Virus record (IMG/VR): IMGVR_UViG_3300037247_000698
Location: 1-37,890 of that record
DNA length: 37,890 nt
Origin: a virus
Direction: 5' to 3' (one strand)
Shown here: positions 30,957 through 34,853 of the stretch, one piece after another
Position numbering within the stretch: position 1 is the stretch's first letter
How the letters are laid out: every line of letters starts with the position of its first letter
Notes under the pieces: model-generated
Told to the model about the DNA's origin: nothing
What the model saw: only the letters and a program-made list of their open reading frames with translations
Databases searched by the model: none
Program-made: the position numbers and the translations under genes

Positions 30957-32111
30957 TCACTTCGCGGGAGCCATCAGCCCCATCTGCGCCGTGCGCTCCC
31001 GCGCCATCTTGCAGTAGTCCGCGCTCATCTCGATGAGGATCGAGTGCCGGCCCAACCGCTCAGCCACCAGCCCAACGGTGCCGCTGCCGGCGAACGGGTC
31101 GAGGACCCGGCAGGGGACAGGCTCGCCGTCGTGGTCGCATGCGGGTCGCCAGCCACGATCTACGCGGCGATAGCCATGCCCGCCTTTCGCGGCGTTCTCG
31201 GCTCGCTGTCCACGAGCGCCATCGTCTTCGTGGTCATGCCATGATCGCCCGATGGTTCCACCTTCCGCCTCCACCACCCGCTCCCACGGCGCGCCACACT
31301 CCGGGCAGCACCCCCGCTCCGACGTGCCTGCCAGGATACACGGCTCCACCAGCTTCTCCGGGAACGTGGCGAAGTGGGCTTTAGGATAGGGCTGCGTCGC
31401 GATCTCCCACACGGAGCGGCGGTTGCGGCCAGCGGGATGGTTGCCTGCCCTGTCCCGTTGCTCGCTTCGCCCGGGCACAAATGACTTGGGGAGACATCCT
31501 CGCTGCCCATCGAAGTTTGGACGCTCGATACCAAGATTCGGCTCCCGTATCGCGTCGGCGTCGTAGTAGTACCGCGCCTTTTTCGTGAGCAAGAACATGT
31601 ACTCGTGGCTCCGCGTCGGCCTGTCCGTCACCGACTCCGGCATCGGGTTGGGCTTCGACCACACGATGTCCGAGCGCAGCCACCAGCCGTCCGCCTGTAG
31701 CGCGAAGGCCACGCGCCAGGGAATGCCCACGAGATCCTTAGGCTTGAGGCCGGGCGGCGTTGGGGCACGGCCACAGGGATGATTGCTGTGCTTGTGGCCA
31801 CCGCCTGTCCCTAGCCGTTCACCCAATTTGTCTAGTGCTTGATATGCTGGCTGACCACTGCTCGCATAGCTGTCACCTAAATTCAGCCAAAGCGTCCCGT
31901 CGTCCCGCAGCACCCGCCGCACCTCGCGCATCACCTGGACGATGTGCTCGACGTACAGCTCCGGCGTCGGCTCGAGGCCCAACTCATCGGGGCCGATGCT
32001 GTAGTCCCGAAGCCCCCAATAGGGCGGGGACGTGACGCAGGTATGAACGCTGCCGTCCGGCATCGCGGCCAGGGCCTCGCGGGCGTCGGCGCAGATGATC
32101 TCGACGGTCAT
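30957..32111 (-). CDS. DNA methyltransferase, beta-class (N4-cytosine or N6-adenine), 384 aa
   Basis: ATG at 32111 with AGGAGGACCGTAA upstream. The catalytic motif TSPPYWGL (27-34) precedes the AdoMet-binding motif DPFAGSGT (338-345), which is the beta-class order. SPPY favours N4-cytosine, though N6-adenine enzymes also carry it. A Cys pair (CCPECGAPW) in the long middle suggests a zinc-bearing target-recognition insert. No matching endonuclease is nearby, so it is likely an orphan enzyme protecting phage DNA from host restriction. Confidence 0.87.
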   Translation of the reverse strand: MTVEIICADAREALAAMPDGSVHTCVTSPPYWGLRDYSIGPDELGLEPTPELYVEHIVQVMREVRRVLRDDGTLWLNLGDSYASSGQPAYQALDKLGERLGTGGGHKHSNHPCGRAPTPPGLKPKDLVGIPWRVAFALQADGWWLRSDIVWSKPNPMPESVTDRPTRSHEYMFLLTKKARYYYDADAIREPNLGIERPNFDGQRGCLPKSFVPGRSEQRDRAGNHPAGRNRRSVWEIATQPYPKAHFATFPEKLVEPCILAGTSERGCCPECGAPWERVVEAEGGTIGRSWHDHEDDGARGQRAENAAKGGHGYRRVDRGWRPACDHDGEPVPCRVLDPFAGSGTVGLVAERLGRHSILIEMSADYCKMARERTAQMGLMAPAK

Positions 32112-32516
32112 TTACGGTCCTCCTTGCCGTCGATTATACCTCACAAAGCCGTCGAGGCGCGCCCTGACGCTAAGAAGAATGTCGACGTGATAGACCGCGA
32201 GGACCCGAACGACGTCATCCTCAAATATCGAGCCATCGCGAACCTTCCGGAAGTGCTCGAGCTCCTTGTCGACCCATGCCCGGGCGAGCGCGAGCTCCGG
32301 CGAGACGATCTTCGGTCGAGGAGATCGATACCGTAGGCCAAGCGTGTTCCTTGTATAGACGCCGACCGATATCCCGTTGCGGCCGATCTTCTCGGCGATC
32401 CGATGAGCACTCCATCCCAATGCCCACAATTCGCCGATCTCCTGACGCTCCTCGGGCGTGTAGCGGCCCCGCTTGGTCGAGCGCGCCAACGACTGTCTAT
32501 ACCTCGACATTAGCAT
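32112..32516 (-). CDS. Helix-turn-helix-like protein, 134 aa
   Basis: ATG at 32516 (or 32510), six bases past the C5-methyltransferase stop. KRGRYTPEERQEIGELWALG and WSAHRIAEKIGRNGISVGVY form a resolvase- or myb-type helix-turn-helix (helix, turn, recognition helix). The C-terminal half is helical. Lying between two methyltransferases it may regulate them or the late genes. A target is not visible. Confidence 0.6.
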   Translation of the reverse strand: MLMSRYRQSLARSTKRGRYTPEERQEIGELWALGWSAHRIAEKIGRNGISVGVYTRNTLGLRYRSPRPKIVSPELALARAWVDKELEHFRKVRDGSIFEDDVVRVLAVYHVDILLSVRARLDGFVRYNRRQGGP

Positions 32517-32521
32517 CGTTC

Positions 32522-33358
32522 TCACTTCGGGGCCGCGTCGGTCCTCATGATCCGCCGTCCGAGCCATTCGGCGACTTGCGGCACGACGGCGTTTCCGAGT
32601 CCTCTAAGTCTGTCCACCCGAGAGGGAACCCCATGAGCCACTCGACCCACGTCGGATTCAACTGTCCACCAGTCGCCGCTTGATCCGTCGGCTCCGGGAC
32701 GTGAACCGCCCTTCCGAGGAGTGAGTTGACGGGGACGTTCTTGCATGACTCCGCGCTTCCGTCCTTGTGATCCCGGCCCGTCGGAGTCGGCCAAAGCCCA
32801 TGTCGCGCCATCGCCTGCAAAGACGGCCGGACTGGCCCTATCCACCCCATCCCGCCACCCTGATTTGATCCGTATGAGATCGCGCTCGGCGTGGGCCACA
32901 ATGAAGACGCGGTCTCGAAGATGCGGGGCACCAAACGCCGCCGCCGATAGACGGTCCCATTCAGCATGATACCCGCCTTCGGCCAGTCCTCCGAGAACCT
33001 CATCGAATCCCCGAGTAAAGAGCCCTGGCACGTTTTCCACGAGGACGTATCGGGGTCGTAGAACGCCAATGAGTCGAGCCATCTCCGGCCAGAGCCATCG
33101 AGGGTCATCGGCTCCTCGTCGCTGTCCGGCGACCGAGACGGGTTGGCAGGGGAATCCTCCGCAGATGAGATCAACCTTTTCGAGCTCATCGCCTGTAACC
33201 TCCTTGATATCGCCATAGCGACGGACGTCCGGCCAATGCTTCGCGAGGACGCGGCGGCACCACTCATCGATCTCGATTTGCCAAACGATCTCCATACCGG
33301 CGCGCTCAAGGCCGAGGTCAAGGCCGCCGATCCCGGAGAAGAGACTTCCGACTTTCAT
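32522..33358 (-). CDS. DNA (cytosine-5) methyltransferase, 278 aa
   Basis: ATG at 33358 behind AGAGGACCGTA. Canonical motifs in order: I SLFSGIGGLDLGLE (5-18), IV GGFPCQPVS with nucleophile Cys 71, VI VLVENVPGL (about 105-113), VIII FGAPHLRDRVFIV, a short target region, and IX-X RLRGLGNAVVPQVAEWLG at the end. It is shorter than typical Dcm enzymes (about 330-450 aa) because of a small recognition domain. From residue 84 on, the DNA is also read in another frame (32545-33108). Probably protects the phage genome from restriction. Confidence 0.92.
   Translation of the reverse strand: MKVGSLFSGIGGLDLGLERAGMEIVWQIEIDEWCRRVLAKHWPDVRRYGDIKEVTGDELEKVDLICGGFPCQPVSVAGQRRGADDPRWLWPEMARLIGVLRPRYVLVENVPGLFTRGFDEVLGGLAEGGYHAEWDRLSAAAFGAPHLRDRVFIVAHAERDLIRIKSGWRDGVDRASPAVFAGDGATWALADSDGPGSQGRKRGVMQERPRQLTPRKGGSRPGADGSSGDWWTVESDVGRVAHGVPSRVDRLRGLGNAVVPQVAEWLGRRIMRTDAAPK
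32545..33108 (-). CDS. Overprinted second frame within the C5-methyltransferase, 187 aa
   Basis: An alternative minus-strand frame stays open across residues 84-271 of the methyltransferase. It encodes a peptide pattern I recognise from stand-alone phage proteins next to dcm genes: FYDPDTSSWKTCQGSLLGD, FSEDWPKAGIMLNGTVYR, LWPTPTGRDHKDG and LNPTWVEWLMGFPLGWTDL. The methyltransferase motifs VGRVAHGVPSRVDRL and RGLGNAVV are read from the same bases in the other frame, so both frames look selected. ATG at 33108 (MTLDGSGRRWL) is a possible start; no strong ribosome binding site is seen. Function unknown. Confidence 0.6.
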   Translation of the reverse strand: MTLDGSGRRWLDSLAFYDPDTSSWKTCQGSLLGDSMRFSEDWPKAGIMLNGTVYRRRRLVPRIFETASSLWPTPSAISYGSNQGGGMGWIGPVRPSLQAMARHGLWPTPTGRDHKDGSAESCKNVPVNSLLGRAVHVPEPTDQAATGGQLNPTWVEWLMGFPLGWTDLEDSETPSCRKSPNGSDGGS

Positions 33359-33383
33359 TACGGTCCTCTTGCGTCGATTATAC

Positions 33384-34853
33384 CTAGAAGCTCCTCTTCA
33401 TGATACCGCCGGAGTCGGGGTCGGCGCCCCGGACGTCCTCGAGTTGCTCACGACTCGGAATCGAGCCCTCCGGAAGGTCGAGATTGATCGCCTTCGCCAG
33501 ATCGGCATAGGCGCCGGCCGTCGCGATGACTTGGTCGTCGTGAGCGCCGCCCGGGTAGCTCTCCGCCTCGTCCAGCCAAGCGCCGATCCATGAGCCCTCA
33601 ACGAGGAAGAGATCGCCGCTCTCGGCCAAGGAGGAGACAGGATTGACCCGGAGCTCGGGCGCGCCGGTCGCCGGGATGCCCTTGAAGTCGTAACCAGCGA
33701 GGACCCGGCGGCGGTAGTGCGAGATGACAGTCTTCCCGGAGGCCCCGGGCTCTTGCTCCATCCTGATCCTGATATCCTGGCCGTCCGCCTCGGCGGTCGT
33801 CTTGATGATCCTCTCGACCTCCCCGGGCGTCTCCCGCCGCCGGACCATCCCCTTGATGAAGTAGCGATCGAGCTCGTCGCGGCCCATGAGGGCGCCGACC
33901 GTATAGTCCGGGTCCTTGCCCGGCTTCGGCTCGGTCGCGGCGAGATCCCAAAACCGCGTCCAAGTGCAACGGGGCGCCGCCTCGACGATCCTGTTCGCAA
34001 ACCACTCCCGGCGAAACTTCTTGCCCTCCGCTCTCACCGTCCAGTCTCCGGCGACGAGTTGGGCCCGCGTGATCGGGTCAAGATGCCGGAGCGACTGGAG
34101 ATAGCTCTCGCGGTCGACGTGAGGGTTGTCCTCGAGCTTCGCCGGCACGAACGGCCTCCCGGCCGAGGGCCCCTCCGTAAGCATCCGTTGTTTGACCCAC
34201 TCATGGCCGACTCCTCCGGGGTTGGACGCCCATCGCATCCGGAGCGGGACGCGGGAGAGCATGGCGATCCGTTGGCAGTTGGGGCAAGCGGAGTCCGGCT
34301 CGTCCTTGTGGTCCGGACACGTCGGCCGCCGGAGTCGCGAGAAGAGATAGGTGTATTGGCTCTCGGTAAACTGCGTGAGCTCGTCGAAGCCGATGTATTG
34401 AAACTCCGCCGATTGATAACCGTACTTGTCGCCCTCATATTGGAGATAGCCGAAGGTGAGCGTCGCCCCCAACGGGAAGCGCCAAGAGTGAGTCTCATGA
34501 TCCCACTTCGCATCGGTCGGCCGGAGCCATTGATCGGCTCGCGCCATGAGAGCGCCGGGGAGGGAGAGGTCGCGATAGGATCGGCGGAGGAGGAGGGCCG
34601 CATAGCCGGGGATCTCGATGTATTGGAGGGCGGCCATGAGGAGCGCCTCGCTCTTGCCCCCGCCAGCCGCGCCCCCATAACCGGCCTCTTCATCGTTGAG
34701 GAGGAGGAAATAGCTTTGCTTAGGTGTCGGGTTTTTCGGGTTGTATGGGCGGATCAGCCGGAGGCGGGAGGTAGGCGGCCGCCATACGTCCGGCGAAGTG
34801 ACCGGCGGCCGCGATCTCAAAGCCGACCCGGAAGACGTCTCGCCAGAAGTCAT
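33384..34853 (-). CDS. Terminase large subunit, 489 aa
   Basis: ATG at 34853 with GAGGGAGAGCTCGATA upstream is preferred over one at 34871. The ATPase part has Walker A GYGGAAGGGKSEALL, Walker B FQYIGFDELTQF and the coupling motif RWASNPGGVGHEWV. The nuclease part has FWDLAATE and AHDDQVIATAGAYADL with conserved Asp residues. A Cys/His insert (CPDHKDEPDSACPNCQ) lies between Walker B and the coupling motif and may bind zinc. It drives DNA packaging through the portal. The start overlaps the small subunit by 134 nt. Confidence 0.9.
   Translation of the reverse strand: MTSGETSSGSALRSRPPVTSPDVWRPPTSRLRLIRPYNPKNPTPKQSYFLLLNDEEAGYGGAAGGGKSEALLMAALQYIEIPGYAALLLRRSYRDLSLPGALMARADQWLRPTDAKWDHETHSWRFPLGATLTFGYLQYEGDKYGYQSAEFQYIGFDELTQFTESQYTYLFSRLRRPTCPDHKDEPDSACPNCQRIAMLSRVPLRMRWASNPGGVGHEWVKQRMLTEGPSAGRPFVPAKLEDNPHVDRESYLQSLRHLDPITRAQLVAGDWTVRAEGKKFRREWFANRIVEAAPRCTWTRFWDLAATEPKPGKDPDYTVGALMGRDELDRYFIKGMVRRRETPGEVERIIKTTAEADGQDIRIRMEQEPGASGKTVISHYRRRVLAGYDFKGIPATGAPELRVNPVSSLAESGDLFLVEGSWIGAWLDEAESYPGGAHDDQVIATAGAYADLAKAINLDLPEGSIPSREQLEDVRGADPDSGGIMKRSF

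What the first reader, a model, noticed from the sequence alone, without database searches (positions are those of the whole stretch)
32545..33358. Dual-coding DNA: a second conserved-looking protein overprinted on the C5-methyltransferase
From residue 84 of the C5-methyltransferase to near its end, another minus-strand frame stays open for 187 codons from an internal ATG. It spells motifs (WPKAGIMLNG, LWPTPTGRDH, NPTWVEWLMGFPLGW) that I recall as recurrent in phage proteins annotated near dcm genes. The same bases give VGRVAHGVPSRVDRL and the GNAVVPQ motif in the methyltransferase frame. Both frames carrying family-like motifs suggests true overprinting rather than a shadow. The second protein could be a partner, inhibitor or specificity factor of the enzyme.
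Basis: partly seen in the sequence, partly recalled or inferred. Interest (0 to 1): 0.75.

Follow-up and report, generated by a model that had tools for sequence, protein, structure and literature searches.

The report
Nested second subunit inside phage methyltransferase gene
One stretch of phage DNA encodes two proteins in two reading frames, and the evidence says they are the two halves of one DNA-methylating enzyme: the catalytic half and, hidden inside its gene, the half that recognises the DNA site; the arrangement recurs in phages and in many bacterial genomes and is usually half-annotated.

Summary
Window 32522-33358(-) encodes a C5-cytosine methyltransferase polypeptide (alpha). In 49 relatives fetched by the methyltransferase frame alone, the +1 frame has 3 stops where synonymous-codon shuffles give 125; the +2 control has 328 against 323. 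Between motifs VIII and IX, substitutions fall mostly on beta's third codon positions: there beta is the selected frame and alpha is a free linker. Alpha matches solved methyltransferases by sequence only to motif VIII, and AlphaFold finds disorder until a final motif-X helix. Beta's C-terminal profile matches the target-recognition-plus-motif-IX part of single-chain phage methyltransferases, in frame with their catalytic core. Best explanation: a two-polypeptide C5-methyltransferase of the M.EcoHK31I kind, beta supplying target recognition and motif IX. Beta is therefore not a de novo protein, inhibitor or shadow. Nested pairs occur in 159 of 160 related viral loci and 76 of 80 bacterial/archaeal loci fetched; public records usually annotate one frame. 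Protein expression and activity remain untested.

The parts
32522..33358 (-). alpha: C5-cytosine methyltransferase large polypeptide, 278 aa; motifs I-VIII (residues 1-157), non-conserved linker (about 161-245), motif X (GNAVVPQ, 255-261)
   Evidence: PF00145 1.2e-48 over residues 1-158 only; HhaI/HaeIII match only to residue 156; AlphaFold pLDDT about 82-98 over 1-157, 42-57 over 161-250, 88-98 at the C-terminal helix; HhaI Z 27, 193 of 327 residues aligned
32545..33189 (-). beta: nested +1-frame gene, 214 aa, proposed target-recognition and motif IX subunit
   Evidence: ATG at 33189; stop avoidance; phrog_1008 4e-35; codon-position spectrum; homology to TRD-IX of single-chain MTases
33199..33206 (-). 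Shine-Dalgarno-like AAGGAGGT 8-9 nt before the beta ATG, inside alpha codons I-K-E-V
   Evidence: ATG+SD enrichment in the family, 14 of 56 against 2.6 +- 1.2
32640..32900 (-). beta segment between motifs VIII and IX: LWPTPS...LWPTPTGRDH..., proposed target-recognition domain; alpha frame here is an unselected linker
32607..32660 (-). beta LNPTWVEWLMGFPLGWTD, motif IX; alpha frame over the same bases: ...VGRVAHGVPSRVDRL
   Evidence: both frames constrained here
33372..33384 (-). GGTATAATCGACG (TATAAT) upstream of alpha; same 13-mer upstream of the next MTase gene at 32128-32140

Best explanation
The locus encodes one C5-cytosine DNA methyltransferase as two polypeptides from overlapping frames of one message. 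Alpha (frame 0) supplies the catalytic large domain: SAM site, PCQ nucleophile loop, ENV, RxR, and the returning motif X helix. Beta (+1 frame, own Shine-Dalgarno and ATG) supplies the small domain: target recognition plus motif IX. The two chains assemble into a working enzyme that most likely methylates a specific site in the phage's DNA and so protects it from host restriction. Origin, inferred: the recognition and motif IX segment of a single-chain enzyme was displaced by +1 by two compensating frameshifts, one after motif VIII and one between IX and X. A start then arose upstream in the +1 frame, and alpha reads through the displaced segment as a linker. Shown here: both frames conserved, which frame is selected where, homology of beta to TRD-IX of single-chain enzymes, alpha lacking that domain. 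Inferred: translation of beta in vivo, assembly, methylation, target site, biological role.
For: Stop avoidance in +1 only: 3 against 125 in MTase-selected viral loci, 10 against 283 in bacterial/archaeal loci; three single-chain controls show 20 against 29. ATG in the +1 frame near the PCQ codons: 39 of 56 against 18.6 +- 3.4; with SD 14 against 2.6. Substitutions at alpha positions 1/2/3: 0.188/0.131/0.486 before beta, 0.401/0.218/0.212 between VIII and IX, 0.179/0.165/0.514 after the beta stop; pos3/pos1 ratio 2.54 (2.26-2.94) against 0.53 (0.44-0.66). Beta profile hits TRD-IX of single-chain MTases in the core's own frame and not the cores; beta's C-terminal model is in the same ORF as the core in L171 and L173. 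Actinophages Spino and miche keep the same TRD-IX-X part as a separate, partly overlapping gene. In L008 and L215 beta carries motif X in its own frame, and in L008 the alpha ORF ends before it. Alpha has no fold between VIII and X. Precedent: M.EcoHK31I and M.AquI (PMC3404938).
Against: No expression or activity data. The beta monomer model is poor (pLDDT 63, pTM 0.32) and matches no solved structure, so the small-domain fold is inferred from sequence only. No beta member matches any Pfam model. The published summary of M.EcoHK31I puts the predicted TRD in the large subunit, which differs from the assignment made here.
Confidence: 0.88

Rival explanations
1. Shadow frame: the second frame looks conserved only because the MTase is conserved and codon usage is biased.
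For: Over motifs IV-VIII alpha dominates and part of beta's N-terminal similarity is such a shadow: the full beta profile also hits the +1 frame of a single-chain MTase.
Against: Synonymous-codon shuffles expect 125 stops and 3 are seen, with no deficit in +2; the substitution spectrum reverses between VIII and IX; the C-terminal part has homologues that are in frame with MTase cores.
Confidence: 0.03
2. Programmed frameshifting: ribosomes shift from alpha into the +1 frame near motif VIII (and perhaps back) to make one core-TRD-IX-X protein.
For: Single-chain relatives have core, TRD, IX and X in one ORF; the overlap would allow a shift.
Against: ATG and SD are enriched upstream in the +1 frame; the frame stays open far upstream of motif VIII; in L008 alpha ends before motif X, which beta carries; in Spino the two parts are separate, barely overlapping genes.
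Confidence: 0.06
3. Beta is a separate de novo protein that regulates or inhibits the MTase, or counters host defence, rather than a part of the enzyme.
For: Nested reading frame in a phage; no Pfam family.
Against: Beta's C-terminal half matches the recognition and motif IX region of single-chain MTases and alpha lacks exactly that region.
Confidence: 0.04

Closest known systems
M.EcoHK31I (YGGCCR), two-polypeptide C5-MTase; split described in PMC3404938 citing Lee, Kam and Shaw 1995
   Same: Large polypeptide with motifs I-VIII and X; small one with motif IX; as I recall, the small gene lies wholly inside the large one in another frame.
   Different: The published summary puts the predicted TRD in the large subunit, whereas here the selected recognition region is in beta's frame. 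EcoHK31I is a restriction-modification enzyme; this is a phage MTase with no restriction enzyme identified here. Sequence homology untested.
M.AquI (CYCGRG), two-polypeptide C5-MTase
   Same: Catalytic I-VIII part and motif IX part on separate polypeptides.
   Different: [quoted passage not shown] here X stays in alpha. Actinophage Spino and loci L008 and L215 resemble AquI more.
Single-chain actinophage C5-MTases (e.g. prophiGD91-2 gp27, Gordonia phage Leonard gp5)
   Same: Same LPTP-repeat recognition region and EWMMGxPxGW motif IX as beta.
   Different: All in one frame and one polypeptide.
PHROG 1008 and nested annotations such as Paenibacillus phage Shelly gp56 and Escherichia phage K1ind1 ORF28 (Mte8-like)
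   Same: These are beta proteins; Shelly and K1ind1 annotate both frames.
   Different: Labelled DNA methyltransferase, internal gene or Mte8-like, with no statement that beta completes the enzyme.

Membership tests
C5-cytosine methyltransferase (PF00145) | Catalytic motifs I, IV (PCQ), VI (ENV), VIII (RxR) and X | tested here: met
   PF00145 1.2e-48; P70 C71 Q72, E108 N109, R148/R150 invariant and GNAVVPQ nearly so in 103 alphas; HhaI fold Z 27
M.EcoHK31I-type two-polypeptide C5-MTase | Large polypeptide with motifs I-VIII and X but not IX | tested here: met
M.EcoHK31I-type two-polypeptide C5-MTase | Small polypeptide encoded in another frame inside the large gene | tested here: met
   openness and starts
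M.EcoHK31I-type two-polypeptide C5-MTase | Small polypeptide carries motif IX | tested here: met
   EWLMGFPxGW aligned by profile to the segment just before motif X in single-chain MTases; not verified in a structure
M.EcoHK31I-type two-polypeptide C5-MTase | Both polypeptides required for methylation | not testable with these tools
   needs biochemistry
M.EcoHK31I-type two-polypeptide C5-MTase | Sequence homology of both chains to M.EcoHK31I | not tested
   M.EcoHK31I sequence not found by name in what was searched; the 1995 paper is not held
M.AquI-type split C5-MTase | Small subunit with motifs IX and X | tested here: not met
   Window beta stops before any motif X in its frame; met instead in Spino, L008 and L215
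De novo overprinted orphan gene | No homologues outside the overlap | tested here: not met
   TRD-IX homologues in single-chain and split MTases

The most novel reading that the evidence does not exclude
Nested two-frame C5-methyltransferases are a widespread, ancient enzyme architecture across phages and several bacterial phyla. A recognition domain was pushed into another frame and is selected there as an independent specificity subunit, while the catalytic chain reads through it as unselected linker. Many catalogued phage and bacterial C5-MTases are then half-annotated, and the published placing of the TRD in the large subunit of M.EcoHK31I may need revision.
Probability: 0.7. Interest if true: 0.8.

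Novelty: new variant of a known kind. Interest (0 to 1): 0.74.

Why it matters
Long same-strand nested genes are rarely demonstrated in DNA phages and bacteria. Here one of about 200 codons is conserved between distant hosts, and the selected frame changes along the gene. It explains a large PHROG labelled only 'DNA methyltransferase'. It implies that specificity predictions and expression clones made from the annotated frame alone would lack the recognition domain, and it offers a clean test case for overlapping-gene evolution by displacement of an existing domain rather than de novo birth.

Tried and rejected
The AlphaFold model of beta alone was poor and its Foldseek and VIA searches gave nothing. 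Pfam and PDB sequence searches with beta found nothing. Classifying loci with the full-length beta profile was rejected because its N-terminal half also hits the +1 frame of single-chain MTases as a shadow; a C-terminal-only model was used instead. A first motif VIII boundary by regular expression located too few genes and was replaced by alignment. K1ind1 DNA had no near match in E. coli genomes. Stand-alone beta recalled from memory (endings like LEPLATDKFQSWL) proved to be nested too, in Acinetobacter phage ABMM1. Literature searches found no paper describing the arrangement in phages, but only open-licence papers were searchable. The CmoX paper has no mention of a subunit or overlapping frame.

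Full report
What is in the sequence. The minus strand at 33358->32522 encodes a 278-aa C5-cytosine methyltransferase (alpha). In the +1 frame a 258-codon open frame ends at 32545. A better start is the ATG at 33189, preceded by AAGGAGGT, giving 214 aa.

Is it more than chance? For this gene alone, no: 0 stops against 1.5 expected. Relatives decide. I fetched 80 viral loci with the methyltransferase protein only, so that the second frame was not used in selection. After dereplication, 49 genes with recognisable PCQ and GNA motifs had 3 stops in the +1 frame against 125.5 expected from permuting synonymous codons; the +2 frame had 328 against 322.6. Bacterial and archaeal loci, which were fetched through a second-frame motif and so are partly biased, gave 10 against 283 in +1 and 691 against 709 in +2; three single-chain controls gave 20 against 29. 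An open ATG in the +1 frame within about 90 nt upstream of the PCQ codons is seen in 39 of 56 genes against 18.6 +- 3.4, and with a Shine-Dalgarno match in 14 against 2.6 +- 1.2.

Which frame is selected where? Seventeen greedy non-overlapping gene pairs at 65-96% identity were compared (two of them, L085/L119 and L074/L118, are copies of one another, so 16 are independent). Before beta, substitutions at alpha codon positions 1/2/3 run at 0.188/0.131/0.486 per site, normal for alpha. Between motif VIII and motif IX they run at 0.401/0.218/0.212: the variable position is beta's third. Changes silent in alpha but altering beta are 0.67 of expectation, and those altering alpha but silent in beta 1.47. 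After the beta stop the pattern returns to alpha's. The pos3/pos1 ratio is 2.54 (2.26-2.94) in the N-terminus and 0.53 (0.44-0.66) between VIII and IX by bootstrap over pairs. Over motifs IV-VIII alpha dominates and beta is only weakly constrained; around motif IX both are. These are count-based tests, not a full overlap-aware likelihood model.

What each chain is. Alpha matches PF00145 only over residues 1-158 and HhaI/HaeIII only to residue 156. AlphaFold gives high confidence to residues 1-157, disorder over 161-245 and a confident C-terminal helix at motif X; the model matches HhaI with Z 27 over 193 of 327 residues. So alpha is a large domain without the small, DNA-recognising domain. Beta has no Pfam match, but its profile matches, in frame with the core, the LPTP-repeat plus EWMMGxPxGW region of single-chain phage methyltransferases (E 1.8e-11 for prophiGD91-2 gp27 and 3.8e-11 for Leonard gp5 at Z = 10,000), and the separate C-terminal genes of Spino, miche and HumptyDumpty, while none of the catalytic parts is hit. 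That region lies between motifs VIII and X and holds the target-recognition domain and motif IX.

Natural variants agree. In Spino and miche the N-terminal part ends just after motif VIII and a partly overlapping +1 gene carries TRD, IX and X. In L008 alpha ends early and beta carries IX and X; L215 also has X in beta. Motif X can thus sit on either chain. With a model of beta's C-terminal half, the nested +1 relation holds in 79 of 80 viral loci fetched by the second frame, 80 of 80 fetched by the MTase frame (the two sets share some contigs), and 76 of 80 genome loci, whose record titles span Actinomycetota, Alphaproteobacteria, Bacillota, Chloroflexota, Bacteroidota, Planctomycetota and one archaeon.

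Mechanism proposed. One message, two initiation sites, two chains that assemble into one C5-methyltransferase. By analogy, phage DNA methylation would protect against host restriction; the window holds a second (amino) methyltransferase next door and no restriction enzyme was identified in the genes examined. Expression, assembly, activity and target site are inferred. The likely origin is displacement of an existing recognition domain into +1 by two compensating frameshifts, so between VIII and IX the newcomer is alpha's frame, not beta's.

Known or new. Two-polypeptide C5-methyltransferases are known: PMC3404938 states that M.EcoHK31I's larger subunit has motifs I-VIII and X plus the predicted TRD and that only motif IX is in the smaller one, and that M.AquI's smaller subunit has IX-X. 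That the EcoHK31I small gene is nested in another frame is from my memory. Beta proteins are already a PHROG (phrog_1008, 110 of 113 members), and a few records annotate both frames (Shelly gp55/gp56; K1ind1 ORF29/ORF28), while others annotate only beta (DosHalletts gp71) or only alpha (HB10c2). I found no paper that describes the nested arrangement in phages or its spread, within open-licence literature. I file it as a variant of the M.EcoHK31I kind: the recognition region is placed in beta here, and direct homology to M.EcoHK31I is untested.

Noticed in passing
window 32128-32140 and 33372-33384 (-): Identical 13-mer GGTATAATCGACG (contains TATAAT) within a longer near-repeat ending in AGGACCGTAA, just upstream of both methyltransferase genes: a duplicated promoter/ribosome-binding cassette.
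   Followed up: partly
window 30957-32111 (-): Adjacent amino-methyltransferase (PF01555, 1.9e-45), separated from alpha by a small HTH-like gene (32112-32567).
   Followed up: no
L051:3103-4017: Beta frame runs on after GWTEVD into an HNH-like C-terminal domain, and alpha repeats its GRVAHGVP element: looks like a homing-endonuclease insertion at the nested gene's end.
   Followed up: partly
L215:2140-3948: Desulfobacterales MAG: HNH-like insertion inside alpha, and beta with a long extension carrying motif X in its own frame.
   Followed up: partly
L208:2555-3245 and L252:866-1820: Beta TRD-IX and alpha motif X present but no normal catalytic core upstream; recombined, truncated or misassembled remnants.
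   Followed up: no
L081:2167-3039 (DosHalletts), L168 (K1ind1), L166 (Spino): Public annotation is inconsistent: only beta, both frames, or two 'DNA methyltransferase' genes for the same kind of locus.
   Followed up: partly
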